A stretch of 64,000 nt of DNA from Leuctra nigra (taxonomy: Eukaryota > Arthropoda > Insecta > Plecoptera > Leuctridae), in assembly GCA_934045905.1 (NCBI GenBank), contig OW203769.1:15407705-15471704 (forward strand), read 5' to 3'. The position numbers and the translations under genes are program-made. Positions 2,823 through 64,000 of the stretch are shown here, piece by piece. Each line of letters begins with the position of its first letter. Position 1 is the first letter of the stretch. The notes under the pieces were generated by a model. That model saw nothing but the letters and a program-made list of their open reading frames with translations. It did not search any database and was not told the DNA's origin.

Positions 2823-2899
2823 TTAACTGATGCACAATCTGAAAAAGAAACAGTTGTGCTCTTGCTTTCCAACACTCGCTCATCAACGCTTTCACTAAG

Positions 2900-16600: not shown

Positions 16601-18169
16601 GCGTCGCCAGAAGACTGAGAAAAGTCGAACACCAGCTGAGCGAGGTTTAATGGGGTTAAGTCAAGGAGGAGCATCAGACTTGGTATTAGGGATCCAGGAA
16701 TTGAAGGAGGTTGTGAATCGGGATATCAAGAACTCAGTTGAAGAAGAGAATAGACTCGAACTTGATTTGGAGATGCAGAAACGTCTGGTGGAATGCATTG
16801 ATTTGCACCGGGAATTATTAATGTGAATACAGTTTGTATAATACCAATCGCACGACATAATTTTAAACTGTTTAATGATATTTGAAAATGTGTGTACATA
16901 TGCCAATAAAATAGGGGTATGACTTCATGCTTCACATTACACGTTTGACTTATTATGCTGATCAACATGTCTAAAATTCTCTTAGAAAACCATTGACATT
17001 TTTGTATGGTATTAATAATAACTGAGTATATGCATACCTGCACACTCGCGGTTTTAAAATAAGTGATAGTTCTTCAGTGTCTTATCGCCTTACACAATTT
17101 GCTAAATTTATAATTCGGTATAATTCAAATTTGAAATTGATTTTATTATACTTTATCATTTTAGGACATTTAAAAATGCTCTCATTACAATGCAACCGAA
17201 TATAATGAGTGGCATTATTCTTCACGCTTTCTACTCATCTGTGACTGCTATGTACTTAATTATGGTAAGTATAATGCCCTAAATGGACATCATGAAAACT
17301 GAAATTCCAACTAACTATTCTCTTTTACCTCACCACAGGCACCAGCGTACGACGTCGTAGCCAAAATGTTTATGATCATATTTCTCGCTGCATCAATTTT
17401 TATCGCCTTCTATTGTTATCTGGGTGACCAGCTCACTGAGGAGGTAATTACCTTGCATTTATCTTTCCCTATGTTGGGCGCCATTTGTAACAACCGCGCT
17501 GCCTTGCTATAGTGAGGGAGGCTGTCTACGGTTGTGATTGCTTCGAAGCGTCGGAGAGCTTCAAGCGATCAATGCGGATCATGATGTAAATGGCTAATCA
17601 ACTTGTTGTCCCGTGTTACAGAGCTCGCTAGTGAGGGAGGCTGTCTACAATTGTGATTGGTTCGAAGCGTCGGACAGCTTCAAGCGATCAATGCGTATCA
17701 TGATTTCGATGGCCAATCAACCTGTTGCCATCAGGGTAGCTGGTTTAGTTCCCTTAACTCTGGAGACTTTTCAAACCGTAAGTGTTTCTTTACTAAGTAC
17801 CTAGTTTATAGTTTCGGTTTTCTCAAAAATATTTCGATATACTATTTTCTAGAATATAGTACACTGCCAGTCTATTCTCGGGAATGAGTCGATAAAGTTA
17901 TCAAAAAGGCATCCAGGTTTATCGTCCAGATATTACGAATCTGACTATTGTTGTTTGATCATGATACTCTTGACGACGACCGCGGTTATAATCAATAGAT
18001 TTATAAGTATCTTAGCAGTTGTCTAAAGATTACTTCTCTTTCTGATAATCTGAAAGTGTGTGTACGCTTCAGTTCTGCATTGTACCAATTGTTTTGTCTC
18101 CTGTTCTAGATGCTAAGGACTTCGTATGGATATTATTCTGTACTTGCCAAGGTCATCGCAAAGAAGTAA
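13686..18169 (+). CDS. Odorant receptor OR-A with giant loop repeat
   Basis: There are seven exons: 13686-13746, 14776-15214, 15302-16822, 17165-17264, 17339-17443, 17622-17777 and 18110-18169. Splice phases match throughout, giving 813 aa, about twice the usual 400 of an insect OR. Order: short N-terminal exon (MDTRRDYRIMQPAFKVL), TM1-TM3 in exon 2, TM4 early in exon 3 (AVFYFSTLQCVLLTILIHMI), the repeat array, then TM5-TM6 in exons 4-5, and the family-typical tail in exons 6-7 (REAVYNCDWFEASDSFKRSM, then TSYGYYSVLAKV). By the inverted OR topology the array lies in the cytosolic loop between TM4 and TM5. Family role: ligand-tuned subunit of an Orco-containing cation channel in olfactory neurons. 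No lesion is seen. A polyadenylation signal lies at about 18421. Confidence 0.88.
15483..16670 (+). repeat. 12 x 99-bp coding repeat in OR-A exon 3
   Basis: Twelve direct copies of a 99-bp unit encode a 33-residue repeat starting ADSLEHIMAKRRQKTENSR and ending TPAERGVMELSQGG. No copy has a stop or frame slip. Amino-acid changes are few (M/K/R/V at position 8, R/H at 12, R/Q at 19), and many silent differences are C/T at the GCC/GCT alanine codon. The unit is rich in Lys/Arg and Glu and likely helical. It replaces or extends the ordinary TM4-TM5 intracellular loop. Confidence 0.95.
17509..17621 (+). pseudogene. Dead duplicate of OR-A exon 6
   Basis: Just before true exon 6 lies a copy reading agtgagggaggctgtctacg through atggctaatcaa, offset by 119 bp from the real exon. 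It lacks a good acceptor AG at its start and has TAA where the real exon has TCG (ATGATG-TAA-ATG). The acceptor of the real exon ('cccgtgttacag') lies directly after the copy, so the copy now serves as the polypyrimidine-poor end of intron 5. Confidence 0.8.
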
Positions 18170-22096: not shown

Positions 22097-22914
22097 CATC
22101 GCCACGCATCTCGGCAACTTCTACCTACGTCCCGACGACATACGTCACTTGCTGGCGTCGGTGGAGGCGATCAGCGCCGGACACGCGACGCGTAGGAGAC
22201 ATCACGTGATCGTCGGGAGAACGACGAGGATCACGGACTTCGTCATGGAATACGTCACGACTCTTACCTACAGATCCGTATTCCTTCTTTACGTCTTTGC
22301 AGCTATCTTTACTATAATCTACAATGAGTCCTTTGCAACGGGGTGAGTGATTTTGGATGTTGCTTTCTTATTCCGTTGGCCATTCGTTGAATGTTGGGTT
22401 CTCCCCACGAACAAACTGCGTGCCTAATATCTAATATACATCACCACGCCCTCCTTTTTTCGAAAAGAATTGATAAGTCTGGCTTAGACCTATGTCAATT
22501 CCACTCCTCTCTTTTTCTGCAATTTTACACACACTCACGCACACCCACAAAGAATTACAAACGGTCACGTTTTCATCCCCAATTGTAAGAATTCAATATC
22601 AAGTTCAATGTTTTTTGTATTTTACACGAACATTTTAATGGGTTTTTAAAAGGATTCTCATATAAAGTTGCAAAGCCGGAGCAAAGATAACTGGTATAAT
22701 ATTTGCAAAATAACTCACAGTTTTAATTTTCAGAGTGTATTTCCCATACAACACTAAAATATCGCCAAATCGTGAAATTACAATATTAATTTACTTCGCA
22801 ATATGGACATCCTCAAGAGTTTTATTCGCCGACGCTCAATGCGTAACGTACACAATTATCTTGCACATTACTTGTCAATTCAAAGTCCTGTGCGACAAGT
22901 TGTTGAATATCCGA

Positions 22915-23373
22915 GCTGACAGTCTCGAGCACATCATGGCCAAGCGTCGCCAGAAGACTGAGAACAGTCGAACACCAGCTGAGCGAGGTGTATTGAAGTT
23001 AAGTCAAGGAGGAGCTGACAGTCTCGAGCACATCATGACCAAGCGTCGCCAGAAGACTGAGAACAGTCGAACACCAGCTGAGCGAGGTGTGATGGAGTTA
23101 AGTCAAGGAGGAGCCGACAGTCTCGAGCACATCATAGCCAAGCGTCGCCAGAAGACTGAGCACAGTCGAACACCAGCTGAGCGAATTGTGTTGGAGTTAA
23201 GTCAAGGAGGAGCTGACAGTCTCGAGCACATCGTGGCCAAGCGTCGCCAGAAGGCTAAGAACAGTCGAACACCAGCTGAGCGAGGTGTGATGGAGTTAAG
23301 TCAAGGAGGAGCCGACAGTCTCGAGCACATCATGGCCAAGCGTCGCCTGAAGGCTGAGAACAGTCGAACACCA
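22915..23373 (+). repeat. 5-copy 99-bp repeat in OR-B exon 3
   Basis: There are four full copies and one shortened copy of the same 33-residue repeat as OR-A. They are more divergent from the consensus than most OR-A copies (VLKLSQ, EHSRTP, ERIVLEL, KAKNSR, RLKAENSR), consistent with relaxed constraint or less recent homogenisation. Confidence 0.92.
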
Positions 23374-24476
23374 GCCGTGTTGGAGTAAAGTCAAGTAGGA
23401 ACACAACTTACTCTCAAGGTACTGTCAGACTTGGAAGAGGGAATGCAGGAAACGAAGGAGTTTTTAAATTATGAAATCCAGAGCAAGACTGAACAAGATA
23501 TGAATCGTGAACTTGACTTGGAGATGGAGAGACGTCTGAAGGAATGCATCCAGCATCATCAGGAACTTATTAGGTAGGAATTCCCCTCACAACATGAGAG
23601 ACTGTTCTGTCATCATTCCTTTATTCCTGATTTTCATTTGGATGTGTTTTCATATTTCCAGGGTTCATGGCAACTTTGTCCTGAAGCTTCAACCGAACAT
23701 GACGAGTTTGATTTGTATTTTCTTAGTGAACTCTTCTCTGGCAGTGTTGACCTTGTCCTTGGTATGATGATAATTTTATTAATATTAGAGATGTAAAAAC
23801 ATCTAAAAATAAACTCAGCTTAACCCGGATATGCTATAAACCTATAGTTAATCGATAGGTGTGGATATAAACATAAAATATATGCTGTTATATCCCAATC
23901 AACCGTACTTCAAAAGTTACTCAAATAAAAAAAAATCCAAATGATCTATGTTTATTAATAAACATTATTAATAAAACTTGATATAATATAATCATACTTT
24001 TTCATCCCTTATAGATAACTGGATTTAATTTGAATGCTTACATCATATTTTTTGTTTTCACCATTGAATCGGTCTTCATTGCGCTCTACTCCTATCTCTT
24101 CGATCAGTTGACGGAGCAGGTAAGAATATTGAGATGAAGTCTTTCGTTGGGCGCCATTTGTAACAGTCCAGGCATTCCGTGTTACAGAGTGAAGCAGTGA
24201 GGGAGGCTGTCTACGGTTGTGATTGGTTCGAAGCGTCGGACAGCTTCAAGCGATCAATGCGGATCATGATGTCGATGGCTAATCAACCTGTTATCATGAA
24301 AGTGGCAGGCTTTGTGCCCTTTACATTGGAATCATTCCGGACGGTTGGTTCAGATTGTGGTACGCTCTACGTCAAGTGATAGCGACTTCGTAAACATTTA
24401 CTTCCTTTATTTTCAGATCGTGAGAACTTCGTATGGTTTTTACTCCGTCCTTACGAAAGTGGTCACTACGCATTGA

Positions 24477-31700: not shown

Positions 31701-34700
31701 AACAGAGTCTGGTTGCTAAAGATAACAACAACAAAAAAATTGTGGGGTTAGGGGGGGGGGGGGGGGTCGAAAAATGTGGGGGTTTATTTCTAGCAAATCC
31801 CTGAGCCACCACTTTTGTAGCAATAGAGTTGCTCGAGTAAAAAAAAACTTTTTTTGAAAAAATATTTTTTTTGAGAAAAATATTTTTTGTGGGGTTGAAA
31901 AAGGGGAGTTCCTGCAGCAAAATCCCACCGCTGGTACCACTTTTGTAGCGGCGCAAACGGGGGTGGAAATTAGGGGTAGTGCGCCACCAACCATACCGTG
32001 GAGGACATGGTATGGGTTTAGATGTGATAATTGATAATAAAAAGGTAGAATTGTTGGAGGTGTGGGAGATAATCTAAATGTTATCTGGTCAAGTCATGGA
32101 AAAGGTAGCGTGGGTGGTTTACGATGAATGAAGAAGATCATTTATGATGATAGCGAACAATGAATACGATGTTTATTAGTTACCGTGGAAATATAACATG
32201 ATTGAGAATAGCGAGCGAATAACACGTTGAAGCGTAATATTATTGATAATAATATTATTGATTTAATAATATTGATAATTGAAAGTGAAAGATAAAAGAT
32301 AAATGGACACAAGTTATGACTGAAGTTATGATTGAATTGGTGAACAGATTTGACATAGTTGGATTGTAAATAATCTTGAATAAGACAGAGAAAATTATTG
32401 TTACGGTAATTATGAGCGAAGACAAGAGACAGAGATTCACAGAGAGACACTTGTTACAATTGTATCGATGATTATCACAGACTTACCGGCGAAGTCCAGC
32501 GTTTCTGACCATGGGGCAAAGCCCATGGTCAGAGTGAAACTCTACAAGCCAAACGTCTAGAGTTCCAAGTTGTTGGAACCAGACTAGATATTTAGACTTG
32601 GTAGTACAAGGAGAGATAATGTTCAGAGTTCCAAGTTGTTGGAACCAGGCTGAGCTTTATCTTCCATGGTGGTGAGTTAGATGTTAACTGATTTGTCTAG
32701 TTGAAGACGGCTCTTTATATAGTCAGTTCTTAACAGTAAATAGAAAGTGTGTTACTTTGTAGAAAAGGCGGAAAGATTCGAATGGAAGTGAAGTTGTTGT
32801 TTTGACTTTAGTTAGAATGATGTTGTTGATGGAATATTACAATAATAGTGTGAAGTTACATTAGAGAAGTTATATAATAATATTTACTTCCATTCCTTTC
32901 CTTATGTTGGTGTTTGTGTGCATTGAAGATGTTAAAAGAGGTAAGATTGAAGAGCTGTCATTATGACGTTGATTTGACACATGAACATCGACTTGATTTG
33001 ACTTAGGTTTATAAACAATATGGCGTCTTGCCGTGACATGGTTTAGAAGGTTCTCTAGACCTGAGATTACATTGATGGTTGTCGTTTGATAATTAATACC
33101 TACTGTGTTGTTTAGGTGAAGCAGCCATTGAATAATTATATAATTTAGAATCAGTAAAGGGTAATTCCTTTACAGTCTCTCCTGCTTCGGGGATTTTCGT
33201 ACTACTCCTGACGGAGTAGTCGAAAATAAACTTTAAACAATTGATGAATGTCTTTGTTTGCTTGATGTTGAGTACTTGATTCGAAATACACATTTTACAC
33301 TTTGATTGACACTTGATCACTGCACTGGGGAACTTGCGTTGTGTAGGCGACGAAGGTGGAGTGTCGTGATGGTTGCGTGATGTGTGTGATGCGAGCACGA
33401 AAATTAAGCCGTTGACGTTGAAGTTGAGGGGATGAGTTTGTACGTTTGTTTGATGATGTAAGGATTGTTTGTCTGTTCTTGATGTTGTGATGATTTATGA
33501 TAATTGATTGTTCGCTTGACGTTGTGATGAGTGATTTTCTTTTCTTTTCTTGAAAGTGTGAGGATTGTTTGCTTTTTTTCTTTGGTTGTGGGGATTGATT
33601 GAGGAATTTGTTCATTTTAAATTGTTAGGATGGTTGATTAAGTCGTTCAGTTGATGTTTTTGGAGGATTTTAAGAATAAGTCGTTAGCATTAAAGTCGAT
33701 ATGATTGGGCGTTGAGAAGAATGGAAGGCGTCGAGAAGATTGGACGGCGTGTCGAGAAGATTGGATATCGTGTCTGGTGACACTGGCGTCGAGAAGAATG
33801 GAAGGCGTTGAGAAGAATGGACGGCGTGTCCGTTGACAGTGGAGTCGAGAAGAATGGACAGCGTGTCCGATGACACTATGGCGTCGAGAAGAATGGACGG
33901 TGTGTCGAGAAGAATGGACAACAAGTCCGATGACACTGGCGTCAAGAAGATTAGATGGTGTGTCGAGAAGAATGGATGGCGTGTCCGGTGACACTGGCGT
34001 CGGGAAGAATGGATGATGAAGACGTTGTCACTTAAGTCCAGATGATTCCGATGTTCTACTGAATCTTGGCGGAAACTGGATTCTGCGTTGACTTTCAGTT
34101 TCACTCTGGCTTGTTGATGATGATTGACGACTGGTCACAAGTGTTCGAGTGACTGATGACTTTCGCTTGATGACTTTCGCTTTTGTTGAAAGAATGTGTA
34201 CATCAATAACAAGAGTGAACTCGTGAATAATCTCTGATTATATGAATTTGTCTCTGTATATCTAACAATTGCCGCGAGAACGATGTGCGAAAAGAATATG
34301 CCTTGTCTAAAACTAGGAACATAGAAAATAACGATGGATTTCTTATGCATGGCGGAACATCACATACAGAAACGAGAGAATGTCTTATGCAGGGCGGTAC
34401 ATGCCATAAGGTTGACTTAAGACTAAGAGATTGCAAAGTGCTTTGCGAAGGCAATACTTAACACACGTGAAAAGAGAGGCAATGAAATTTAAAGTGAGAC
34501 GAGATAAATAACCCGAGATAATCCAACTGAATTTGGAGACGAATAAACGGTGTTGCGTGACGACTGGCGAACTATAGTAAATGAGAGATTTTAATGAAGT
34601 AATTTTCCAGACTGTCGGAATAGCATTTCGGAAGAACTAGAAGGGATTCATTCAATCGAATGACCCGGATTTAGTAGCTATTTGACAGAAGGAGAAAATT

Positions 34701-37700
34701 GATGATCGATGACGAGATTGCGATGAGAGAGAGAGAAAATATAACGTGAACATAGATATGCAAGTTGAGTTTGAACGTACAGTTGAGAACGTGAACCTGT
34801 GTATTTTTTTGAGGTCAATAGACTATCCTGGAAGTTGATTCTTTGAGGTTCAAAAAAATGAATAGACGTAGGAGATTACGTGATTATAAAATTTTTGCAT
34901 TCCTGAAGAATTGTAATATCAAGGAGACACGGTAATTGAATGAACAATTAGAACTGTTGTGCGTATTAATTGAACTTTGATCATGACACGAAATCGAGGT
35001 AATTAGTGTCCGAGAAGAACGACGCGACGAAATGATGGAAATAGAACGACTTAACGACATGATTGAATGATGAATACGAATTGATTAGAAGATAAATGAT
35101 CCGAAAAATTGTTACGAGCTTGACGTGGATGACTTGACATAGGTTTGATAACAGGTGAAAAAGGGGGGTTTCGAGCAATTCCTTGACCACTTTTGTAACA
35201 GAGTCTGGTTGCTAAAGATAACAACAACAAAAAAATTGTGGGGTTAGGGGGGGGGGGGTCGAAAAATGTGGGGGTTTATTTCTAGCAAATCCCTGAGCCA
35301 CCACTTTTGTAGCAATAGAGTTGCTCGAGTAAAAAAAAACTTTTTTTGAAAAAATATTTTTTTTGAGAAAAATATTTTTTGTGGGGTTGAAAAAGGGGAG
35401 TTCCTGCAGCAAAATCCCACCGCTGGTACCACTTTTGTAGCGGCGCAAACGGGGGTGGAAATTAGGGGTAGTGCGCCACCAACCATACCGTGGAGGACAT
35501 GGTATGGGTTTAGATGTGATAATTGATAATAAAAAGGTAGAATTGTTGGAGGTGTGGGAGATAATCTAAATGTTATCTGGTCAAGTCATGGAAAAGGTAG
35601 CGTGGGTGGTTTACGATGAATGAAGAAGATCATTTATGATGATAGCGAACAATGAATACGATGTTTATTAGTTACCGTGGAAATATAACATGATTGAGAA
35701 TAGCGAGCGAATAACACGTTGAAGCGTAATATTATTGATAATAATATTATTGATTTAATAATATTGATAATTGAAAGTGAAAGATAAAAGATAAATGGAC
35801 ACAAGTTATGACTGAAGTTATGATTGAATTGGTGAACAGATTTGACATAGTTGGATTGTAAATAATCTTGAATAAGACAGAGAAAATTATTGTTACGGTA
35901 ATTATGAGCGAAGACAAGAGACAGAGATTCACAGAGAGACACTTGTTACAATTGTATCGATGATTATCACAGACTTACCGGCGAAGTCCAGCGTTTCTGA
36001 CCATGGGGCAAAGCCCATGGTCAGAGTGAAACTCTACAAGCCAAACGTCTAGAGTTCCAAGTTGTTGGAACCAGACTAGATATTTAGACTTGGTAGTACA
36101 AGGAGAGATAATGTTCAGAGTTCCAAGTTGTTGGAACCAGGCTGAGCTTTATCTTCCATGGTGGTGAGTTAGATGTTAACTGATTTGTCTAGTTGAAGAC
36201 GGCTCTTTATATAGTCAGTTCTTAACAGTAAATAGAAAGTGTGTTACTTTGTAGAAAAGGCGGAAAGATTCGAATGGAAGTGAAGTTGTTGTTTTGACTT
36301 TAGTTAGAATGATGTTGTTGATGGAATATTACAATAATAGTGTGAAGTTACATTAGAGAAGTTATATAATAATATTTACTTCCATTCCTTTCCTTATGTT
36401 GGTGTTTGTGTGCATTGAAGATGTTAAAAGAGGTAAGATTGAAGAGCTGTCATTATGACGTTGATTTGACACATGAACATCGACTTGATTTGACTTAGGT
36501 TTATAAACAATATGGCGTCTTGCCGTGACATGGTTTAGAAGGTTCTCTAGACCTGAGATTACATTGATGGTTGTCGTTTGATAATTAATACCTACTGTGT
36601 TGTTTAGGTGAAGCAGCCATTGAATAATTATATAATTTAGAATCAGTAAAGGGTAATTCCTTTACATTTGACAATATGTTACACCCACACTCTCACTGAC
36701 ACTAGAACAGTAGAATTGAATCAGAACAGTTTTAGGATTGTTATTAATTAGTCCCATCACTATACTGATTTATAACCTCTCGGTAGGTACACTCAGCCAA
36801 ACATAAAGTGATCGTGATGAAAAGTTAGAGTATCATCTCTTGTCTATTAATTTTCCGATTGCCTGTACAAACCGGTCAGACCTCTCACTCTAGCTGCTAT
36901 CTCTCTCTGTGCTCGAGTAATAACAAGGGATGGGGGAGATATTGACGTCAAATAGAAACAGGTAATTTCTCAATCGCATCAGCCTAAGCATGTCGAATCA
37001 TCATTCGAATATTGCTCCTGGCTAACCCGATCGTGGTCTACCGAGATTTCGGCTCACATTTTCTCAATAAGTGCAATCTATATTATGTTTCAGATTCATA
37101 ATTTTAAAAATATTTATTATGATGTTTTGCTTTTGCTAATTTTAAATTTCATTTGCAAACAATCCGGTGTATGTGCAGTTAATCAATTCATAGCACAAAG
37201 AATACGTCTGTCTATATCAGTGGCACTCAACCTGCGGCCCGCGGGCCGCATGCGGCCCGTGGAACTAATTTTTGTGGCCCCCCAGTTGATGTTTCCAATA
37301 CCTACTCGTACTTATTCACACAATCAAAATCAACTGTGCAAATAATATAAAAAAATAACAAATAACAAAATGTTTCATTGAACACATTATTTGAAAAATG
37401 TGAAATGTTTTATTATTTTATATGATTTGGTTTTTTAAAGTTTAGTTTTGTCCTGAAGAAGGTCCAAACATATTGATCGAAACTGTTAACATTACATAGA
37501 AATAAACTAACAGGATGAAATATCCATATGAAGAAGATTTTAACAATTTCTTGTTTGCACTTGAGAGGAATTTTGAGAGTTGTCATGTTAGGATCCACGC
37601 AACAGGCTGTAAATGCGACGAAAACTTCTTAAATGTAACGTCATACTTGTTAAAACGAAAATGAAGCCATTCACCAATTCCGAAAATTGTGAAATAGTGT

Positions 37701-50162: not shown

Positions 50163-53100
50163 TCATCTTGCAACCACGGATGAGAGAAGTGAGTAGTAAC
50201 CATATGAAGTCTTCAACATCTGTACAAGAGAAATATATGCAATGATTAGTTCTTTTATAATACGCAAGAGAAAAACAAGGTCACAAATACGCACAATTCT
50301 TAAAGTCACAAAAGTTAGCGGAACGAAACCAGCGCCCTTCAAGACCACTGGTTGATTAGCCATCGACATCATGATCCGCATTGATCGCTTGAAGCTTTCC
50401 GACGCTTCGAACCAATCACAACCGTAGAGAGCCTCCCTCACTGCTTCACTCTGTAACGGGACAACAGGTTGATTAGCCATCGACATCAAGAACCGTATGA
50501 TCATCGTACCCGAGCGAGACTTATTTGCTGGAACCGCACCAGCCATATTCGTTGGCACCTACAGAGAAACCTTGCCCCGACTCTTGCCTCCTGTAGTCAG
50601 TGTTTCTCAGCCTTTTGAGACACCTCTAACTTTCTCTGTAGTAGGTACATTTCGGTACATATTGTAATATAATGTAATAGTTATACTCAAGGACTTACTC
50701 CAATGAAAAACAAGTTTGGGTAAGAAAACACATTTGTGCTCGAATCCTTAGGCAGGGCCACACAGGCCACACATGTGGGTCCGCCGGGCCGCTCAGGTCG
50801 GGAACATTTTGAAATTCGAAAGATTTTTTTCCCATTTTAATTCGTTCTAGACAATAATTTTCGTCGATTTCATTTTATTACGTCACAGAGAATATGTTTA
50901 CACATTTTGTATTTGTGGTAGCAATTCCGCCTCCTCTCAACCCCGCCGGTAGAGAACCACTGCTTTAAATAATCAAGTTCGATCATACTTCGATTGGTTT
51001 GTAAGTTTCCTCACAACCTTAGAGAGTCTCTTCACTGCATCACAATGACATAAACATATGAATGTTTTCCTGGCCATTTCCTGGATATTTCTGCGCTTGA
51101 TAATCCCCCAGCGACCACCCGTTCACGCACCGAGGCTAGGCGAGGTGGTGGGGATCGTCAAGCGCAGCAATTGTGCCATCAAAGTAGTTGTATCTCTAGG
51201 AAAACATTGTTAAACTCTGGTCAACCTCATTACCAACAGAGTCCAACTCTATTTGTCAATCCCTCAAGGTCTTACCTCAGCCGAGAGTTGATCGAATAGG
51301 AGACAGTACACGGAGATGATGAATGTGCCTAAGACATGCAATGGCATAATCATCAAAGTGATCGCATCTATAGTGCGTACCTGCGGAGGAAAATAGATTG
51401 ATTAGGTTGTTAGTTGCCAAGAAAAATATCTAAGTATAATGAATTTACAAAGTGATCGCATTAATTGTGCGTACCTCCGGAGGAAAAGAGATACATTAGG
51501 CAGTTAGAATGTCTAAGTGTAGATAATGGATTTTACCTGGAATAAGTATACAGCTACAACAGAAGTAGACACAAGGTAGAAAATAATTCCAGCCATAATA
51601 TTCGGTTGCAGGAAGGCAAGCATGCCATTGAAACATCTGAAAAAGTTTGAAGCATGAGAATGATAATGCGAAATTTAATACAAAATCTAGAGATAAAGCA
51701 AGACACGCTGTTTGCGACCCTATACAAACTTATATTGTAGGGTTTTGGGGTTTGTTTCCCTACCTTAAGAGTGCCTGGTGGTGCTGGACACATTCAACCA
51801 ATAGACTTTGCATTTCCAACTTAAGGTCATCGCTCGTCTCATCAACTTTGTCCATGATTGACTGATTAACAATCTCTTTCAATTTCTGGATTCCCTCTTC
51901 CAAGTCTGAAAGGACATTAGGAGATGGTGGTGCTCCTTCTTGTCTTAAATCCTTCACACCTCGCTCAGCTGGTATTCGACTGATCTCAGTCTTCTGGCAA
52001 CGCTTGGCCATGATATTGTACTCGAGACTGTCAGCTCCTCCTTGACTTAACTCCACCACACCTCGCTCAGCTGGTGTTCGACTGTTCTCAGTCTTCTGGC
52101 GACGCTTGGCCATGATGTGCTCGAGACTGTCAGCTCCTCCTTGACTTAACTCCACCACACCTCGCTCAGCTGGTGTTCGACTGTTCTCAGTCTTCTGGCG
52201 ACGCTTGGCCATGATGTGCTCGAGACTGTCAGCTCCTCCTTGACTTAACTCCATCACACCTCGCTCAGCTGGTGTTCGACTGTTCTCAGTCTTCTGGCGA
52301 CGCTTGGCCATGATGTGCTCGAGACTGTCAGCTCCTCCTTGACTTAACTCCATCACACCTCGCTCAGCTGGTGTTTGACTGTTCTCAGTCTTCTGGTGAC
52401 GCTTGGCCATGATGTGCTCGAGACTGTCAGCTCCTCCTTGACTTAACTCCATCACACCTCGCTCAGCTGGTGTTTGACTGTTCTCAGTCTTCTGGCGACG
52501 CTTGGCCATGATGTGCTCGAGACTGTCAGCTCCTCCTTGACTTAAGGTGGCTCATCCAATCGGGCATGGTCTCAGATTTTCATAATTTTTTGTCTACTTA
52601 TTGATAATCATGCCATACACAATCCCTGAAAAAATTAAACACTTCTCGTGTCTAGTTTTTGAGATAAATTGAGTTTTCTTCCCCATGTTATCTTATGGCA
52701 GACAAGTAAAATCGTGTCACATTTAGGCTAATAATGAAGATCTAATTTTTATGTAGTCCCAACTTTGATCAAAAAACTTTTTTTCTGGTAGATATATGGA
52801 TATCCTATTAGAGAAAAAATTGAAAACAATACCAACGTGTGCTATTTTAGAAGTTATAAGTCAAAAACGCAATGATTTTCCTATACCTCCTGTGTTAAAG
52901 TTTTCTTCATTCTCGGAAGGCAATAATTTTAAACCTCGCTGTAAGACAGGAATTGCAAGTTAAATGACATTTTATTATTTGTTTATACTTAAATAGAGTT
53001 CAAATGTTGGAAAAAGTAATTCATGATGGTAATTTCAAAAAATAATTATTTTGGCATGTTCGATCGGTTGAGCCACGTTAACTCCATCACACCTCGCTCA

Positions 53101-55913
53101 GCTGGTGTTCGACTGTTCTCAGTCTTCTGGCGACGCTTGGCCATGATGTGCTCGAGACTGTCAGCTCCTCCATGACTTAACTCCATCACACCTCGCTCAG
53201 CTGGTGTTCGACTGTTCTCAGTCTTCTGGCGACGCTTGGCCACGATGTGCTCGAGACTGTCAGCTCCTCCTTGACTTAACTCCATCACACCTCGCTCAGC
53301 TGGTGTTCGACTGTTCTCAGTCTTCTGGCGACGCGTGGCCTTGATGTGCTCGAGACTGTCAGCTCCTCCTTGACTCAACTCCATCACACCTCGCTCAGCT
53401 GGTGTTCGACTGTTCTCAGTCTTCTGGCGACACTTGGACATGATGTGCTCGAGACTGTCAGCTCCTCCTTGACTAAACTCCATCACACCTCGCTCAGCTG
53501 GTGTTCGACTGTTCTCAGTCTTCTGGCGACACTTGGCCATGATGTGCTCGAGACTGTCAGCTCCTCCATGACTTAACTCCATCACACCTCGCTCAGCTGG
53601 TGTTCGACTGTTCTCAGTCTTCTGGCGACGCTTGGCCATGATGTGCTCGAGACTGTCAGCTCCTTCTTGACTTAACTCCATCACACCTCGCTCAGCTGGT
53701 GTTCGACTGTTCTCAGTCTTCTGGCAACGCTTGGCCATGATGTTCTTGAAACTCTCAGCTCGGATGTTCAACAAGTTGTCACACATAACTCGGAATTGAC
53801 AAGTGATGTGCAATGTTAATGTGAACAAGACGTATTGTGGAACTCCGAAGATGAATATTGCTGCTGACCAAATCACAACTAGGAGCAACGCAGTGATTTC
53901 TCTGTTTGGTGACTGCAATACGTTGTATGGATAGTGGTACCTGAAAATTATGCCTGCTGTTATCAAACGAAAAATACGAGATATGAAAAATACGAGATAT
54001 AGAATAGGGCCCCAGGGGTGCTATTTTCGAGATCGTTCGAGCGCTCGCATAATCGAGCGTGACGTCAAAGTGACGTCCGTCCGAAGGAAATAGCATCCAA
54101 TAAGCCAAATCAGTTTATAGTTTTGTTTTGTCTGACGTCATATCAGCTCGTACCCGTATGATATTTTACTCGAACGATCTCGAAAATAGCCCCCCAGGGC
54201 TCTAGTAACTCTCACTGCCATTAAGATAGCATTACTCCGAAACGAAGGCGGCCGCGACGAGATCAAAAAATATATAAAAAAGGCCCCCAGAGTCATGTTC
54301 TTTCGGAACTTTTTTTTTTTACTCATAATTCAATTGCATTAAATTATGTACTGTACTTTTTATTTAATCTATTAATTGAGTATGAGTTTCAATCGTATTT
54401 TTTCAGCGCAAAATTATTTTTATATAAATTTACCCAATTATCTAAGATAAAATACAACAATTAATTCGTTAGGGTTGTTCCCATTTGTTTTCTAAAACAT
54501 TGTCCATAGATTTTTTTTCACAAATCTATGAAATAATGAATATTTATATTCATTTATCTGGGCAGCCATACTGTCTTTTAACGAAATTTTTCTCTAAAAC
54601 TGACAGAAGTGTTCTAATATTTGAATGAATTGTTAGGAAGATAGACTCTTCATAAAGGTAAATAAAGTACAATTATTACCCAATTTATAAATTACATTCT
54701 TACCCAGCTGTGTTCAGTTCATCGGTGAATAATAAAAACACGAACGATGCAATCGACAGCGGAAAAATTATCGAAAAATGAACAGTCTGGACGTATTTCA
54801 TCATAGCATCTGTTTTTCTCTTAGTTCTATTGACAATCAAGAGATTGCGCGATCTGCTCCTTGAGAACTTCGCATTGACCTCCTCCATAGCTACAAGCAA
54901 GTGACGTAGTTTGCCTGGACTCGAGTAGAAGTTGCAGAGTGACACAGCGAAGAGAGAACTCAAGTTTAACAAATAGACTAGCTTCGGCAGCGCTCGGAAA
55001 GTGATTTCGCTAGAGTTGATGTAGAAATAAAACCAGCGGTTGAACATCGCTTCGAAACATTGTTCTGCCACAACAAGTCGCGGCAGAAAATATCTCAGAC
55101 CATTTGTAAAGCTCTTCTTAACATTGGAGGAGTAAGGACGAATTCCTGAAAATTGAAATATATTTTTATCAGATTTGATAACATTAGTTTTTAAGCTGAC
55201 ATTTTCAAATGAGTATACTGGGCATAGGGTAAGGTAGCCGATAATGGAAAGTTCCATTTAATGGACAGGGAAACACATTTCTCATGTGATGTCTTGGATA
55301 GGGTTTTAGATGTAAGAATGTATTTTTAACCAAACGTTGTACGTTAAGGATCAAACGCATGAAAACAAGGACGCATCAAACGCAAAATATCTCTACGGCA
55401 CTTTATCCACGAGTCACGACATATCTCAAAGAAATATAATTCCTGGTCCATTTAAGACGCGAGTCCATTAACCTTGCTCTAATATTTGTTTTATATTAGT
55501 AACAAAAAACTCGAGTTTTCCTATAAGTTTTTGAATACGAAATTTTTAAATGCTCACTAAAGTTGAACACAAACTCAGAACTGAGAAAGAGTTATTAAAC
55601 AAGGCAAGGAAAACAATTTTCGCGAGAATAAGGGGGTTGAATGGGACGCCCCCTCCTCCAGCCCCGCATGGCTTTTTTTGGTGTTTGGACACTTTCAAAT
55701 TAATTTTTTAGTATTTTTTTCTTACGAAATGAAACTATACATAACACAACAAAGAACGTTTAAGTTTTCGTGATATTCAGGGGGGGGGGGCAAATACCTT
55801 CTCTTGCCCTCACCCCCCTATACGTCAATACACGCACCTAAGCTGTCCAACACACTGACTGACGCCTTGAAGATGTGATCCTCGTCAGCCTCTTCAGGAG
55901 ATACCCGAGACAT
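50163..55913 (-). CDS. Odorant receptor OR-C, exon 3 split by a MITE
   Basis: The exons, in gene order, are 55913-55838, 55145-54704, 53940-53077 plus 52540-51764 (exon 3 split by an insert), 51636-51537, 51380-51276, 50450-50295 and 50219-50163. Phases and lengths follow OR-A (exons 4-6 are 100, 105, 156 bp). If the insert is spliced out the product is 858 aa. N-terminus MSRVSPEEADEDHIFKASVS, the shared LRYFLPRLVVAEQCFEAMFN motif in exon 2, YHYPYNVLQSPNREIT opening exon 3, 13 loop repeats, and SEAVREALYGCDWFEASESF plus TSYGYYSLLSSVVAR at the end. Without splicing of the insert the ORF stops inside it at MELTWLNRSNMPK. Role as for OR-A. It lies on the opposite strand and is separated from OR-A/B by the hAT element and the receptor gene. 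Integrity depends on that one splicing event. Confidence 0.82.
50452..50530 (-). pseudogene. Remnant of a duplicated OR-C exon 6
   Basis: Directly upstream (gene sense) of exon 6 the minus strand reads gatgtcgatggctaatcaac before the acceptor cccgttacag. This is the same word found inside exon 6 and in the dead exon copy of OR-A. The 5' part of this copy is lost or scrambled. Confidence 0.65.
51355..51520 (-). repeat. Duplicated acceptor and start of OR-C exon 5
   Basis: Two direct copies about 86 bp apart carry 'gtgatcgcat', 'agtgcgtacct' and 'cggaggaaaa'. The copy at about 51450-51490 would act as an extra acceptor (cctccggag|GTACGCACAAT) but meets TAA after nine codons and has no donor. 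The real acceptor is at 51381-51382. Confidence 0.7.
51935..53760 (-). repeat. 13-copy 99-bp repeat in OR-C exon 3, MITE-split
   Basis: Copies 1-7 (first half of 7) lie at 53760-53078, and the rest, 7-13, at 52541-51935. The repeat is the same 33-residue motif as OR-A. The first copy is divergent (AESFKNIMAKRCQ) and the last also (ADSLEYNIMAKRCQ, one extra codon), while middle copies are near-identical to OR-A copies. This edge-divergent, centre-uniform pattern fits ongoing unequal exchange. Confidence 0.93.
52541..53081 (-). mobile_element. TTAA MITE inside OR-C repeat, intron-like
   Basis: The element is 52546-53077 (532 bp) with TTAA at 52542-52545 and 53078-53081. The ends ggtggctcatccaatcgggc and gcatgttcgatcggttgagc are inverted. 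On the minus strand, the gene reads GAGTTAAC|GTGGCT at entry and CACCTTAAG|TCAAGG at exit. A GT-AG intron of 536 bp (53076-52541) equals the net inserted length (532 + 4) and changes only one codon (AGT to ACT). The acceptor has no clear polypyrimidine tract, so use in vivo is unproven. Confidence 0.85.
54006..54203. mobile_element. MITE in OR-C intron 2
   Basis: The inverted ends gggccccaggggtgctattttcg and its partner ending ctatccccc-like 'aaaatagccccccagggctc' are TA-flanked. The sub-terminal words 'cgagatcgttcgagcg' and 'ctcgaacgatctcg' pair. The interior has several 'tgacgtca' words. Confidence 0.7.
55630..55835. repeat. Dispersed G/C-tract repeat in OR-C intron 1
   Basis: A 'ccagccccgcatggctttttttggtgtttggacactttcaaat' type block, related to 63480-63560 and 63630-63690. 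Non-coding. Confidence 0.45.
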
Positions 55914-58559: not shown

Positions 58560-59457
58560 CGAAACAACTCTTGGAACTACACCAGTACTGCGTTAAAATA
58601 ATTAAAATAAACTGCCCAATATTTCGCGAGTGCTTCGACTCGCTTCGTCCGGTGCCTACTGAATAATGATGAGCTCACTCTTACGCCCCTAGTCAACTCA
58701 ACCGTCAAAACAACATCCCCAGCACGACACAACTAGCACTATCTGTGGGTTTAGTAAACAATTAAATACAAACGCCCTCTATCAAGCAACCCACAAACCA
58801 AGCCAGTCAATGCCCCTATGCATTCTGCTGGATGCATTTGACCGATGACGACAACAAGGAACGCCACGATTCATAAAAAAAGCAACTGCTCTGGCTAATA
58901 ACACTATTCCCACACGCGATGAAAGCCGCCTCAATAAACCTACGTTTTTTAGTATCCTCTTCATTGTACATTTTTCTGGCCGCATCCCATTGAAAATTAT
59001 GACACTGTGTCCAAGCGTGCTCAGCAACTAATGAAGTACGAATTTTGTGGTTTTTTACATTCTTTTTATGCTCCTCTATCCGAATAGATAACGGTCTACC
59101 TGTCTCGCCAATGTAAACATCTCCACACTGACAAGGCAACGAATAAATAGCATTTCTTGAGCTTTGAATTTTATCACGTGGTTTAGTAGAACACAACATA
59201 CTTCTCAAAGAGTCAGAGGATTTCAAAACCGTTCTAATGTTAAAAGAGTTAAGAATGCGCCTAATATTTTCCGAAAAACCTGGAATATAATCAAAAGTAA
59301 TAGTTTTTATGCACTGAGGTAATGATTGACGCATTGAAGAGCGACTCATTTTGACAACGCCTTCTTTTGACACAGGCTGTTGGTTCAAGGAATCTGATTG
59401 CGAAACTGAATCTGCAATGCTGTCGACGCACTCAGTAAAATCCATAGCGATGTCCAA
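58560..59457 (-). mobile_element. 5'-truncated Penelope-like element (GIY-YIG end)
   Basis: A 213-aa open frame (59457-58816) contains YIPGFSENIRRILNSFNI and LKSSDSLRSMLCSTKPRDKI, then YSLPCQCGDVYIGETGRPLS, the GIY-YIG endonuclease signature, then IRIEEHKKNVKNH. This matches the C-terminal part of Penelope-like retroelements: the end of the reverse transcriptase linker and the endonuclease. The polymerase domain is missing. The non-coding tail toward 58560 includes gaagcgagtcgaagcactcg on the minus strand. It ends about 25 bp from the last exon of the transporter gene. Confidence 0.82.
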
Positions 59458-59481
59458 CAGATGAATTTGTTCATGAATTGT

Positions 59482-62400
59482 TCACTTGTTTAACTCGTCC
59501 ACACTCGCGCTTTCGTTCAAGATTGTGAACACTTTGACAGAGGGTCGTTGCGCGTGGTCGTTCCACCACTGCAGCTGCGCACTGCCGAACAGGATGTAAA
59601 ACGTCCCCGCGCAGACGTAGAAGCCTGCAGCGATGAAGAACACGATCCGCCACTGATCAGCCGAGGTCTGCCGGAAACACACGAACAATATTAGTAGATG
59701 TAGAAGCCAGCAGCGATGAAGAACACGATCCGCCACTGATCAGCCGAGGTCTGCCGGAAACACACGAACAATATTAGTAGATGTAGAAGCCAGCAGCGAT
59801 GAAGAACACGATCCGCCACTGCTCGGCCGAAGTCTGCCGGAAACACACGAACAATATTAGTAGATGTAGAAGCCAGCAGCGATGAAGAACACGATCCGCC
59901 ACTGATCAGCCGAGGTCTGCCGGAAACACACGAACAATATTAGAAGACGTAGAACCCTGCAGCGATGAAGAACACGATCCGCCACTGATCAGCCGAGGTC
60001 TGCCGGAAACACACGAACAATATTAGTAGATGTAGAAGCCAGCAGCGATGAAGAACACGATCCGCCACTGATCAGCCGAGGTCTGCCGGAAACACACGAA
60101 CAATATTAGAAGATGTAGAAGCCAGCAGCGATGAAGAACACGATCCGCCACTGCTCGGCCGAAGTCTGCCGGAAACACACGAACAATATTAGTAGATGTA
60201 GAAGCCAGCAGCGATGAAGAACACGATCCGCCACTGATCAGCCGAGGTCTGCCGGAAACACACGAACAATATTAGTGGATGTAGAAGCCAGCAGCGATGA
60301 AGAACACGATCCGCCACTGATCTGCCGAAGTCTGCCGGAAACACACGAACAACATTAGTAGATGTAGATGCCTGCAGCGATGAAGATCACGATCCGCTCT
60401 GCTCGGCCGAGGTCTGCCGGAAACACACGAACAATGTTAGTAGATGTAGAAGCCAGCAGCGATGAAGAACACGATCCGCTCTGCTCGGCCGAGGTCTGCC
60501 GGAAACACACGAACAACAGGCGTATTAGAAGAAGATAAGAACACAACAGAAAAACAAGTTTTACAAATGTTTATCTGGAATATAATGAACGAATCTTGGA
60601 GAAGCTAAACAAGTCAGCTTGGAATAGCAGCTCAGCATTTATCAAAAGGTTTTTAAAAACAATTGCGTAAGACGATAGAGCACTGGCCAAACTTTCTCCC
60701 GCTAGAGTGGTGCAGCGCTTCCATCGCGTTAGGGATAAGTGTGATGTAAGCTGTGGTGATAAAAATGGAAATTTGCCATTTCCAATTTGCCATCTTTAGA
60801 ATTTGCCACCATTTTAGAAAAAATTAAAGCCAACAAAGTCCATCCACAGTCTTCGAATGCATCGAACGCAGCGCCTGGTGACCTACTGTCACCTACTGTA
60901 CTGTGTACACTACTGTACACTACTGTACTGTGTAGCTTTCCATCGTCCTATCAGCAAAAAATATTCTTGAAAGAAGAAAACATTTTAAATTACGACCGAT
61001 TGTAAAAAAATCCAGGCATTAACTATCCAAGTCCATTAACCCTTGAATCGTCAATCCATGGAGTTATAAATATATAGTACATAACTCCATTGTCAATCTC
61101 CCTCTGTAGTGACTTAGATTGCTTGTCTTCAAAAAGGCCCATGCGGTGGTAAACAACATCTGACTGTGACTGTACTCACGCTGTCAGACACGACGACGCC
61201 GACGACGAGGGGCCCCACGACCCCCATGACGTTGGTCAGGGAGTTGGCGATGCCGACCATGGTGCCGGTGAAGTTGGCGAGGGATAACATGTACTCACGC
61301 TGTCTGTGACGACGACGCCGACGACGAGGGGCCCCACGATCCCCATGACGTTGGCGAGGGAGTTGGCGATGCCGACCATGGTGCCGGTGTAGTTGGCGAG
61401 GGATAACATGTACTCACGATGACAGTGACGACGACGCCGACGACGAGGGGCCCCACGATCCCCATGACGTTGGCGAGGGAGTTGGCGATGCCGACCATGG
61501 TGCCGGTGTAGTTGGCGAGGGATAACATGTACTCACGATGACAGTGACGAGGACGCCGACGACGAGGGGCCCCACGATCCCCATGACATTGGCCATGGAG
61601 TTGGCGATGCCGACCATGGTGCCGGTGAAGTTGGCGAGGGATAACATGTACTCACGCTATCTGTAACGACGACGCCGACGACGAGGGGCCCCACGATCCC
61701 CATGACATTGGCCATGGAGTTGGCGATGCCGACCATGGTGCCGGTGAAGTTGGCGAGGGATAACATGTACTCACGCTGTCTGTGACGACGACGCCGACGA
61801 CGAGGGGCTTCACGACTCCCATGACATTGGCGAGGGAGTTGGCGATGCCGACCATGGTGCCGGTGTAGTTGGGCGAGGGATAACATGTACTCACGCTGTC
61901 TGTGACGACGACGCCGACGACGAGGGGCCCCACGATCCCCATGACGTTGGCGAGGGAGTTGGCGATGCCGACCATGGTGCCCGTGAAGTTAGGCGAGAGG
62001 TCGATGTGGTTGACGAAGAACCCCACATAGGCGGCGCTGTTCGCACCGACGGCCACGGTCAGGAGTGCGATGGAGAGAGTCTTGTCGGTGGAGTAACCGA
62101 GACCGAGCAACATCGCAGCAGGTGTGAACATGCCTGCAGGAAACACGAGGACGCGTTGATCAGCGAGCATTCGTATAGGAATCCTGCTCGTGACGTCACA
62201 GTGGTAGAAAAATGGAGGCTGCTATGGTAGGGGAAATGTGTCAAAGCTATAAATTATAGCTATAAATCATATTTATCAGATGAATATTTAACTTGAACAT
62301 GTGTAAAGATAAATATTGCGTATTATTATTAGCTTGTACTTACTTAAATATCTTTCTTTCACAAGTAATCACTCAAAATATGAGATTTGGATTGCCGCTG

Positions 62401-64000
62401 TCAGATTTGTTTTTCCCTATACTTTTGTATAGGTTACTATGGCAACCTTTTCTCACGCAGGATGCCTATTGCATGCGATTTTACGCGTTTGCAAGTATCT
62501 GCTCTACAGACCAATTATAAAGAGCCGAAACGAAATGGTAAAAAATAAGTGATACACATCTGATTTCAATCAAGATTTTGACACAATCAAATAAAACTAT
62601 TGAGACTTTTCACAAACTATTTTTTAACTACCATGTCCTACCAGCGGTCTCTAGTATTGTTTTTGAACAAAATCTTCTAATCGGTTGAAATGTAGAAACA
62701 AGAACTGTGTCTAATCCAATTATTTTTGCATGCGGTCAATGGCATCAACATTTTGAGACACTTTGCCAATTTTCAGACACATTGGTCATAACTGCAACGG
62801 TTAGGAGTGGGTCAACGACCCCCCATTGTCCTAGTCAAGACCTCGACGAAGACAATGGGGATAGGGGAAATTTGGAGCATTTTATTCGTATTACCGGTAT
62901 CTTTCTTTTGATTTTGAAAGCCAAGACTATTCCTTCTTATATGCAATGTTGTTGAACTTATTGATCTCGGAATAAACTTGGCGAGCAACTAATTAAGATA
63001 TCCCTGAAGAGTGGGCGTTTGAGGGCAAATCCTCCGAGGAAATTGTCTGTAACAGACATATGTTTTTGTACAATTTTGAGGCACATTACGTCCAGTATTC
63101 AAGAAATCCTTTCAATCCCAATTAATGAAATCCCACATATGCCACCATTTGTAAAAGAGATGCAATTTCTCATTTCTTTTCCGGAGCTTGCTTCTTCTTC
63201 CCGTGTGTAGAAAATTTATTTCCAGCTAGCTGTATGCTTCTTCTGGTATGTTTTATTGTAACCGTGCCTATTTACAGACAAAGATGGCGGTCTGGATCAG
63301 GGAACGCCGAACGCCGCAGTTTGCCCGGGCCTGATCTAGAGAGTAGTCCTGATGCATTTCATTAGGTTGGTTCACAGGATGTTTCAAACGCTCATGGGCG
63401 TCCGCACGATTTCTGCCAGGGGGGGACAAGGCAAGGACAAATATTTTCCACGTGTTAGTTAAGGGGGGAGGGGGGGGGGGGGGGGGGCGAGGCCACCACC
63501 CAGCCCCGCAGGGCGTTGTTTGGACACTCTGAAATCAATTTTGTGAATTTATGAGTTGTATTTTGTTTAAATATTCCATTTTCTTTATAATTTGACACTT
63601 TGTGGTGGTGGAAGGCATGTCCCCTCCCAGCCCCCCAGGGCATTTTTAAGATTTTCTACAGCTTGAAATGAATTTTGAGGCGTTATGTTTTGTTGAAATA
63701 ATAAATATTTCTTAAAATTTGACACTTATAAATATTAATTAATATTATTAAAATTAATATTTTTGAGTTTTTAGTTTACAAGATGAAACTATTTACGTAA
63801 ATCACCACTCAAATTCTATGTTTTCTTGACATCCAGGAGGGGGAACCCTCCCCCATGTGGAAGCCCATGATAACGCTTATACACGCTTCTGTACTGTTCA
63901 GTTTAGATTGAAATATATCTCACCTAAACTATTGAACACTTTTCGTGCGACGGTCTTCGTGAGAATATCGTTGTTGGTGACGTAATCCGAGATTCTACTG
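59482..64000 (-). CDS. SLC17-type anion transporter, 3' part (partial)
   Basis: The exons, in gene order, are 64000-63924 (cut by the window edge), 62133-61895 and 59667-59482. Phases 1 and 0 match. The joined protein reads ISDYVTNNDILTKTVARKVF, then MLLGLGYSTDKTLSIALLTV...NFTGTMVGIANSLANVMGIV, then QWRIVFFIAAGFYVCAGTFY and a soluble tail ending VDELNK. This is the last four or so of 12 TMs of an SLC17 (sialin / inorganic phosphate / vesicular glutamate) major-facilitator transporter. Insect members move organic anions across plasma or lysosomal membranes; substrate cannot be told here. Upstream exons lie beyond 64000. The intron between the last two exons is bracketed by two splice-site arrays (listed separately). 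The 5'-most donor (61894) and 3'-most acceptor (59668) give the canonical protein. Confidence 0.87.
59585..60508 (-). repeat. 11 tandem 3' splice-site modules
   Basis: The 82-83 bp unit has acceptor junctions just above 59667, 59750, 59833, 59916, 59999, 60082, 60165, 60248, 60331, 60413 and 60495. Each unit on the minus strand contains tactaat (branch-point-like), attgttcgtgtgtttccggcag and the first about 50 bases of the last exon (ACCTCGGCTGATCAGTGGCG, or AGCAG variants). In all but the 59667 copy the exon part runs into TAA after GFYIY, so only the last acceptor gives the full C-terminus. Confidence 0.93.
60509..61167 (-). other. Unique core of the bracketed intron
   Basis: Single-copy sequence between the donor and acceptor arrays. 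At 60665-60755 a block similar to 13855-13940 (ctggccaaactttctcccgc) marks a dispersed repeat. Near 60890-60935 there is a small cluster of ctactgtactgtgtaca repeats. No exon. Confidence 0.6.
61168..61998 (-). repeat. 7 tandem 5' splice-site modules
   Basis: Units of 119-120 bp each contain the exon text for TGTMVGIANSLANVMGIVGP through VVVTDS and a donor GTGAGTACATG. Donor G positions are 61894, 61774, 61655, 61536, 61417, 61298 and 61179. The first spacing is 120 bp (in frame), the remaining five are 119 bp (frame-shifting). After the last donor normal intron sequence follows. Confidence 0.93.
62134..63923 (-). other. Intron of the SLC17 gene
   Basis: No exon is recognised. Dispersed blocks occur at 62290-62470 (similar to 45170-45310). 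Two related 'ccccgcagggcgttgtttgg' segments with G runs lie at about 63440-63570 and 63610-63700. Confidence 0.55.

What the first reader, a model, noticed from the sequence alone, without database searches (positions are those of the whole stretch)
59482..61998. One intron flanked by 7 tandem donors and 11 tandem acceptors
The two last exons of an SLC17-type gene face each other across a roughly 0.7-kb intron. The edge of the upstream exon with its GTGAGT donor is repeated seven times (119-120 bp). The edge of the downstream exon with branch-point-like TACTAAT and cggcag acceptor is repeated eleven times (82-83 bp). Two independent arrays have grown on the two sides of the same intron, with the splice signals kept in essentially every unit. 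Possible readings are a splice-choice device, selection to keep signals strong during minisatellite growth, or a mechanistic link between splicing signals and tandem duplication. The 77 possible donor-acceptor pairs are a prediction, not an observation.
Basis: partly seen in the sequence, partly recalled or inferred. Interest (0 to 1): 0.9.

Follow-up and report, generated by a model that had tools for sequence, protein, structure and literature searches.

The report
Tandem repeats at an intron's edges
In this genome, most probably an insect's, stretches of DNA that cross the border between exon and intron have multiplied into tandem arrays, giving one intron seven start signals and eleven end signals; most of the possible combinations would truncate the protein, so the extra copies are probably ballast that is spliced out, and the same has happened in related genes.

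Summary
On the minus strand, the last two exons of an SLC17-family gene flank an intron with 7 GTGAGT donors (119-120 bp units) and 11 CGGCAG acceptors (82-83 bp units). The "splice-choice" reading is not supported: 2 of 77 donor-acceptor pairs reach the C-terminus, and 59 of 62 homologues spanning the junction match the outermost pair without a large gap. Within arrays the signals vary as much as the exon copies around them: acceptors 13/180 vs 45/744 variable columns, P=0.61; donors 4/48 vs 65/735, P=1.

[quoted passage not shown] This genome is most probably an insect's. The gene has two more donor arrays beyond the window, of 3 and 14 donors. Eight of 20 SLC17 last-exon acceptors seen have 2-35 copies, with units of 71-147 bp. 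In 20 SLC17 stretches 19 of 32 arrays cross an exon edge, against 4.5 expected; a cruder test gives P=0.016. Four chaperonin loci show none. Best explanation: exon-edge minisatellites survive because extra copies fall into the intron. Splicing was not observed.

The parts
63924..64000 (-). SLC17 exon N-2 (3' part; runs past the window end)
   Evidence: continues in L027
61895..62133 (-). SLC17 exon N-1, likely working copy, ends at donor 1
61171..61997 (-). Donor array, 119-120 bp units, 7 GTGAGTACA donors (last exonic base 61895, 61775, 61656, 61537, 61418, 61299, 61180)
60517..61170 (-). Unrepeated core of the intron between the two arrays, 39% GC
59613..60516 (-). Acceptor array, 82-83 bp units, 11 CGGCAG acceptors (first exonic base 60495, 60413, 60331, 60248, 60165, 60082, 59999, 59916, 59833, 59750, 59667)
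59482..59667 (-). SLC17 last exon, likely working copy (61 codons and TGA)
17510..17727 (+). Odorant-receptor gene OR1: 119-bp duplication across the exon-5 acceptor; the upstream copy carries a stop
   Evidence: OR family:
50343..50498 (-). Odorant-receptor gene OR2: partial upstream copy of exon 5 just before its acceptor
51354..51507 (-). Odorant-receptor gene OR2: 94-bp duplication across the exon-4 acceptor; the upstream copy carries a stop
24188..24343 (+). Odorant-receptor gene OR3 exon 5, single copy: the unduplicated state for comparison

Best explanation
These are exon-boundary minisatellites of the kind called 'mirages' in amphioxus. A short tandem duplication crosses a splice junction (shown: the unit is exon edge plus intron edge). 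The outermost exon copy stays continuous with the rest of its exon and remains the working one (inferred from reading frame and homology); the extra copies fall between the working donor and acceptor and are removed with the intron (inferred, RNA not seen). The array is therefore nearly neutral (inferred), can grow and shrink by unequal exchange (inferred), and keeps its splice signals because units are young and homogenised rather than because they are selected. Arrays seeded wholly inside an exon would enter the protein and would mostly be purged (inferred), which leaves those at exon edges. In this genome it has happened repeatedly in one gene family and also in odorant receptors.
For: 2 of 77 pairs give the full C-terminus, the outermost pair among them. 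62 of 63 homologues span the junction and 59 of those 62 have at most 3 extra residues there. Acceptor unit 7 equals the outermost unit 11 but for one base, acceptors 5-6-7 match 9-10-11 with 0, 1 and 1 differences, and donor unit 6 equals unit 1 but for one base in 90: copies of the working edge lie deep in the arrays. Variable sites in acceptor exon copies (units 3-11) fall on third codon positions in 5 of 6 cases, P=0.018; donors 7 of 16, P=0.26; pooled P=0.033. Other paralogues have 35, 6, 5, 2, 2, 5 and 8 copies of the last-exon acceptor. 19 of 32 arrays in 20 SLC17 stretches cross an exon edge, expected 4.5. OR3 shows the single-copy state next to duplicated OR1 and OR2. The same kind is published for amphioxus, where RT-PCR results are said to suggest undisturbed regular splicing.
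Against: No transcript, read or population data were available. Upstream acceptors with the same last 20 intronic bases, each with a branch-point-like motif, sit in front of the working one, and nothing in the site sequences explains why they would be skipped. Two paralogue arrays (L021 147 bp, L022 162 bp) are open in frame, so using inner sites there would insert residues rather than truncate. Odorant receptors keep in-frame arrays inside an exon, so interior arrays are not always purged. A cruder placement test gives 19 against 13.1 expected, P=0.016. The block-order test is not significant once all lags are allowed for (P=0.15). Six of the 19 arrays are one 143-bp donor type shared between paralogues and two are a shared 71-bp acceptor type, so they are not 19 independent origins.
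Confidence: 0.84

Rival explanations
1. A splice-choice device: the array offers alternative donors and acceptors that are used to make different proteins or to tune the share of productive mRNA (unproductive splicing).
For: All 7 donors and 11 acceptors are intact. Donor 2 with acceptor 11 is in frame and adds 40 residues. Donors 4-7 put a stop 115-472 nt before the junction, the kind of transcript usually sent to decay (the decay rule is recalled).
Against: 75 of 77 pairs lose the C-terminus. The number and unit length of copies differ between paralogues. Signals are not kept better than the rest of the unit. One donor unit against one acceptor unit pairs no better as RNA than shuffled sequence (-44.7 against a mean of -50.1).
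Confidence: 0.06
2. Splicing or transcription itself makes the duplications, for example by repair at exon-intron junctions in R-loops, so that exon edges are mutation hot spots and not only places of survival.
For: Exon edges are strongly over-represented among arrays in SLC17 stretches. Edge units are GC-rich (mean 0.57 over 19, against 0.45 for 19 other TRF rows).
Against: Survival alone explains why exon-touching arrays cross edges. Four chaperonin loci with 26 matched exons show no array on a matched exon. Odorant receptors carry arrays inside an exon, so edges are not the only place of birth.
Confidence: 0.08
3. The gene, or its 3' end, is decaying and the arrays mark a pseudogene with relaxed constraint.
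For: Large arrays at four edges of one gene.
Against: The exons seen in the window are open and up to 53% identical to insect proteins. In the seven other array paralogues the outermost last-exon copy reads 40-90 codons to its stop.
Confidence: 0.05

Closest known systems
Amphioxus 'mirage' minisatellites (globin BflGb6 and BflGb9, Adh3, troponin C, PGBD5; PMC3087553, PMC3902484)
   Same: Tandem repeats that span an exon-intron boundary, at 5' or 3' edges, with AG/GT kept in many units; PGBD5 has arrays of 60 and 108 bp on neighbouring exons (passages and sections seen).
   Different: Most probably an insect, not a cephalochordate. Up to 35 copies (figures seen in those passages: 2-7). Four arrays in one gene; a donor and an acceptor array on the same intron in the window gene and in L012; arrays at the same edge of paralogues with different unit lengths.
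[quoted passage not shown] Drosophila novel introns in PMC2891723)
   Same: Duplication of sequence holding splice signals; in potato it crosses an intron-exon boundary, in fission yeast a 24-bp exonic segment is repeated several times; exon-derived sequence becomes intronic (passages seen).
   Different: No new intron is shown here; the existing intron is extended at its ends by repeated copies.

Membership tests
Mirage minisatellites | Tandem repeat unit spans an exon-intron boundary | tested here: met
   Window donor and acceptor units; 19 of 19 exon-touching arrays in SLC17 stretches, edges read from the printed sequences
Mirage minisatellites | Splice signals present in many repeat units | tested here: met
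   7 of 7 donors and 11 of 11 acceptors in the window; in L009 AG at 32 of 35 assumed positions and 35 motif anchors
Mirage minisatellites | Length instability between haplotypes or in somatic cells | not testable with these tools
   One assembly only; copy number does differ between paralogues
Mirage minisatellites | Normal mRNA is not disturbed | not testable with these tools
   No RNA data; frame and homology favour the outermost pair
Mirage minisatellites | Concerted evolution inside the array, array edges excluded | tested here: inconclusive
   Identical non-adjacent acceptor units 5=9 and 6=8, and inner edge units 1-2 most diverged; but donor edge unit 7 is no more diverged in its exon part than units 2 and 4
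Intron gain by tandem duplication | A new intron is created inside a former exon | tested here: not met
   The intron lies between the same two exons; no additional intron is needed to read the protein there
SLC17 transporters | Sequence homology to solved SLC17 members | tested here: met
   VGLUT2, VGLUT3 and sialin, best E=3e-26

The most novel reading that the evidence does not exclude
In this animal, junction-crossing tandem duplication is a continuing engine of intron-end turnover. Arrays arise at exon edges, hand the working splice site to the outermost copy, rebuild the branch point partly from exon sequence (CTAAT at the unit junction), collapse again and leave decayed exon copies in the intron end. 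This would run across gene families and reshape splice sites without changing the protein.
Probability: 0.3. Interest if true: 0.82.

Novelty: new member of a known kind. Interest (0 to 1): 0.62.

Why it matters
It extends a kind of repeat that my paper searches showed by that name only in amphioxus to what is most probably an insect, with more copies and at the same edge of several related genes. It offers natural test constructs: up to 35 nearly identical acceptors in a row of which, if the reading is right, the last gives the full protein. That makes 'how does the spliceosome pick one of many identical sites' and 'how do intron ends and branch points get replaced' directly testable with long-read cDNA. 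It also warns gene predictors, which could call such copies as extra exons.

Tried and rejected
Amphioxus as source: expected from the mirage literature, rejected when odorant-receptor genes were seen (Pfam 7tm_6 E=1.6e-36 for the joined OR1 exons; that this family is insect-specific is recalled). Species: the SLC17 search, the CCT-delta search (the best-scoring match, Ladona fulva, is 73% identical) and a text search for the genome size (0 papers) did not name it. RNA pairing between one unit of each array: no signal. Selection on signals: no signal. BLASTN self-comparison returned 0 near-tandem rows, so I wrote an offset scan instead. The joined odorant-receptor protein found no homologue in the large protein set. 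Other gene families (PF00067, PF00083, PF00135, PF00115) could not be searched because the machine was busy, so generality rests on SLC17, three odorant receptors and the CCT control only.

The 'single-copy' label for paralogues was too simple: of 11 tested, L013 and L016 hold a decayed exon copy just before the acceptor (0 of 300 shuffles reach their scores), L018 and L023 are marginal and 7 show nothing; the first L015 gene was not tested. In L019 two copies of the 143-bp donor unit are seen by eye but not by TRF, and are not in the counts. Enrichment in the window alone depends on the null: 5 of 13 repeats with period 60 or more contain one of 36 splice sites that I placed by hand, P 0.018-0.032; 5 of 17 with period 30 or more, P 0.05-0.08.

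Full report
What is there. On the minus strand the 3' end of an SLC17-family gene lies at 59482-64000. Exon N-1 (62133-61895) ends in a tandem array with seven identical donors AGC or ATC|GTGAGTACA, and the last exon (59667-59482) begins in a tandem array with eleven acceptors CCGGCAG|AC. The two arrays face each other across 0.65 kb of unrepeated intron. The donor array is 62% GC, the acceptor array 52%, the intron core 39% and the window 40%. The encoded piece matches VGLUT2, VGLUT3 and sialin in the PDB (8 sequences, best E=3e-26) and 63 proteins in the large protein set; 9 are unnamed, and 52 of the 54 named ones are insect proteins, mostly called inorganic phosphate cotransporters.

Which pair works. 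I joined every donor to every acceptor and translated. Two of 77 pairs reach the C-terminus: donor 1 with acceptor 11, and donor 2 with acceptor 11, which adds 40 residues because the first unit alone is 120 bp. With donors 1-2, acceptors 3-10 stop at the in-frame TAA of the branch-point motif; acceptors 1 and 2 also fail. Donor 3 is out of frame. Donors 4-7 stop inside the donor array, 115-472 nt before the junction. Of 63 homologues 62 span the junction, and 59 of 62 have at most 3 extra residues there; three have 11, 21 and 22. The outermost pair is therefore the likely working one. This is inference from frame and homology; no RNA was seen.

Are the signals kept by selection? No sign of it. 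In the window's acceptor array (units 2-11) 4 of 29 intronic and 11 of 55 exonic columns vary (P=0.56), although the 20 columns next to the AG do not vary at all. Over nine acceptor arrays the last 20 intronic nt vary in 13 of 180 columns and the exon parts in 45 of 744 (P=0.61). Over eight donor arrays the figures are 4 of 48 and 65 of 735 (P=1). The units were found by matching part of the signal, and units more than 15% from the consensus were dropped (for example 32 of 35 kept in L009, 9 of 11 in the window), which biases towards finding conservation, yet none appears. Copies of the working edge sit deep in the arrays (acceptor 7 against 11; donor 6 against 1; one difference each), and variable sites in acceptor exon copies favour third codon positions (5 of 6, P=0.018; donors 7 of 16, P=0.26; pooled P=0.033; acceptor units 1-2 left out because of a one-base deletion). 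This fits repeated copying from the working exon into the array.

It is not a single oddity. The window's own genome answered one search with the array (536,196,549 bases, 144 contigs; window = C8:15407705-15471704). 401 bases of the acceptor array gave 49 matches. I fetched 18 further stretches covering the places in that list and the upstream part of the window gene. Counting the window, 20 SLC17 last-exon acceptors were seen, two of them in L015. Eight of 20 have more than one copy: window 11 (82-83 bp), L009 35 (95 bp), L010 6 (71 bp), L011 5 (71 bp), L012 2 (92 bp), L014 2 (95 bp), L021 5 (147 bp), L026 8 (142 bp). Exon N-1 has acceptor arrays in L010 (138 bp, 6) and L022 (162 bp, 6) and a donor array in L012 (85 bp, 6 donors), so L012 repeats the window's arrangement of donor and acceptor arrays on one intron. 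A 143-bp array that I first took for a satellite is a donor array of another SLC17 exon, found by TRF in L014, L017, L020, L021, L025 and L027. L027 is the window gene itself: it carries 14 donors there and 3 donors in a 71-bp array further upstream. The window gene thus has four arrays: 3, 14 and 7 donors and 11 acceptors.

How unusual. In the 20 stretches (196 kb, 99 exons by tblastn) TRF finds 32 arrays of period 40-400 after merging; 19 touch an exon, and reading the sequences all 19 cross an edge (10 acceptor, 9 donor). If the first unit of each array were seeded at random, 4.5 would contain an edge; 0 of 200,000 simulations reached 17. A cruder test that places whole arrays at random gives 13.1 expected, P=0.016. 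The stretches were chosen through an SLC17 query, only SLC17 exons were known, and the shared 143-bp and 71-bp types are not independent. As a control, the 57 chaperonin (PF00118) matches show no exon listed twice in tandem, and in four chaperonin loci (22 kb, 26 matched exons, L028-L031) none of the three TRF arrays overlaps a matched exon (two of them are two-copy arrays of 185 and 141 bp, 185 and 174 bases from the nearest match, not traced further). No random sample of the genome could be had.

Other genes in the window. An offset scan for near-tandem repeats outside the larger TRF arrays put three at the top, all over acceptors of odorant-receptor genes: OR1 exon 5 (also in TRF), OR2 exon 4 and OR2 exon 5. 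OR1's joined exons match Pfam 7tm_6 with E=1.6e-36. OR3 has the same exon 5 in single copy, and alignment to it shows two copies in OR1 and a 41-nt partial copy in OR2. The upstream copies in OR1 exon 5 and OR2 exon 4 contain stops. A permutation over the window is borderline.

Life cycle, inferred. In window, L009, L010 and L011 units a CTAAT motif lies where exon-derived and intron-derived sequence meet, and in OR1 and OR2 exon-derived GCTAATC stands before the acceptor. So the branch point in front of the working acceptor may be partly made of exon sequence. Of 11 single-copy last-exon acceptors tested, L013 and L016 carry a decayed exon copy just upstream (score above all 300 shuffles), L018 and L023 are marginal and 7 are negative. 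Arrays therefore seem to arise, collapse and leave traces.

What is known. PMC3087553 (abstract and passages seen) describes 'mirages' in amphioxus globin genes, both boundaries, 6 and 3 units in two haplotypes, with RT-PCR results said to suggest regular splicing. PMC3902484 (passages, sections 16 and 17 read) adds PGBD5 with arrays on neighbouring exons, and cites Adh and troponin C. The original Adh paper (2002) was not held and is known here only through those citations. Tandem duplication across an intron-exon boundary with a new intron is reported in potato, and repeated 24-bp exonic segments with introns in fission yeasts are cited there (PMC4974935, passages); tandem duplication is proposed for some novel Drosophila introns (PMC2891723, passages). 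In the listings no other title or abstract start reports such arrays in insects; apart from PMC3087553 and PMC2891723 I did not open the papers listed there, and the library lacks most subscription journals.

Verdict. It is a new, unusually large and recurrent case of a known kind, most probably in an insect: the named SLC17 relatives are nearly all insect and the best-scoring named chaperonin relatives mostly so, and odorant receptors of the 7tm_6 family are present, but the species and order are not determined. Interest stays above average because the scale and the recurrence at homologous edges make site choice and intron-end turnover testable.

Noticed in passing
window 15481-16672, 22913-23375, 51932-52545, 53078-53761: A 99-bp, in-frame 33-residue repeat (ADSLEHIMAKRRQKTENSRTPAERGVMELSQGG) in arrays of 12.0, 4.7, 6.2 and 6.9 copies inside one exon of three odorant-receptor genes; in OR2 the array lies in two parts.
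   Followed up: partly
window 2892-3713: A 137-bp unit repeated 6 times covers what looks like the 5' end of a gene with its ATG; the upstream copies encode a short MASFLKKVSDAKIGSRPVVNTV... peptide ending in a stop (read by eye).
   Followed up: no
window 58816-59481 (minus): A 221-aa open frame begins directly after the SLC17 stop codon and looks like the GIY-YIG endonuclease of a Penelope-like element (motif recalled; the Pfam scan gave no such match).
   Followed up: no
window about 29000-36150: A stretch with the same small repeats occurs two to three times at about 3.5-kb spacing, with identical open frames such as 29597-29998 and 33093-33494.
   Followed up: no
window 11371-11829 (minus): Open frame with a weak gustatory-receptor match (PF08395, E=6.8e-05, below the curated cut-off).
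   Followed up: no
L012 2123-4192 (gene-oriented): A 61-bp unit repeated 34 times fills much of the intron between the donor array and the acceptor array.
   Followed up: no
L033 (C10:25468100-25469950): An intronless, open CCT-delta gene of 538 aa, possibly a retrocopy; the best-scoring match is 73% identical.
   Followed up: partly
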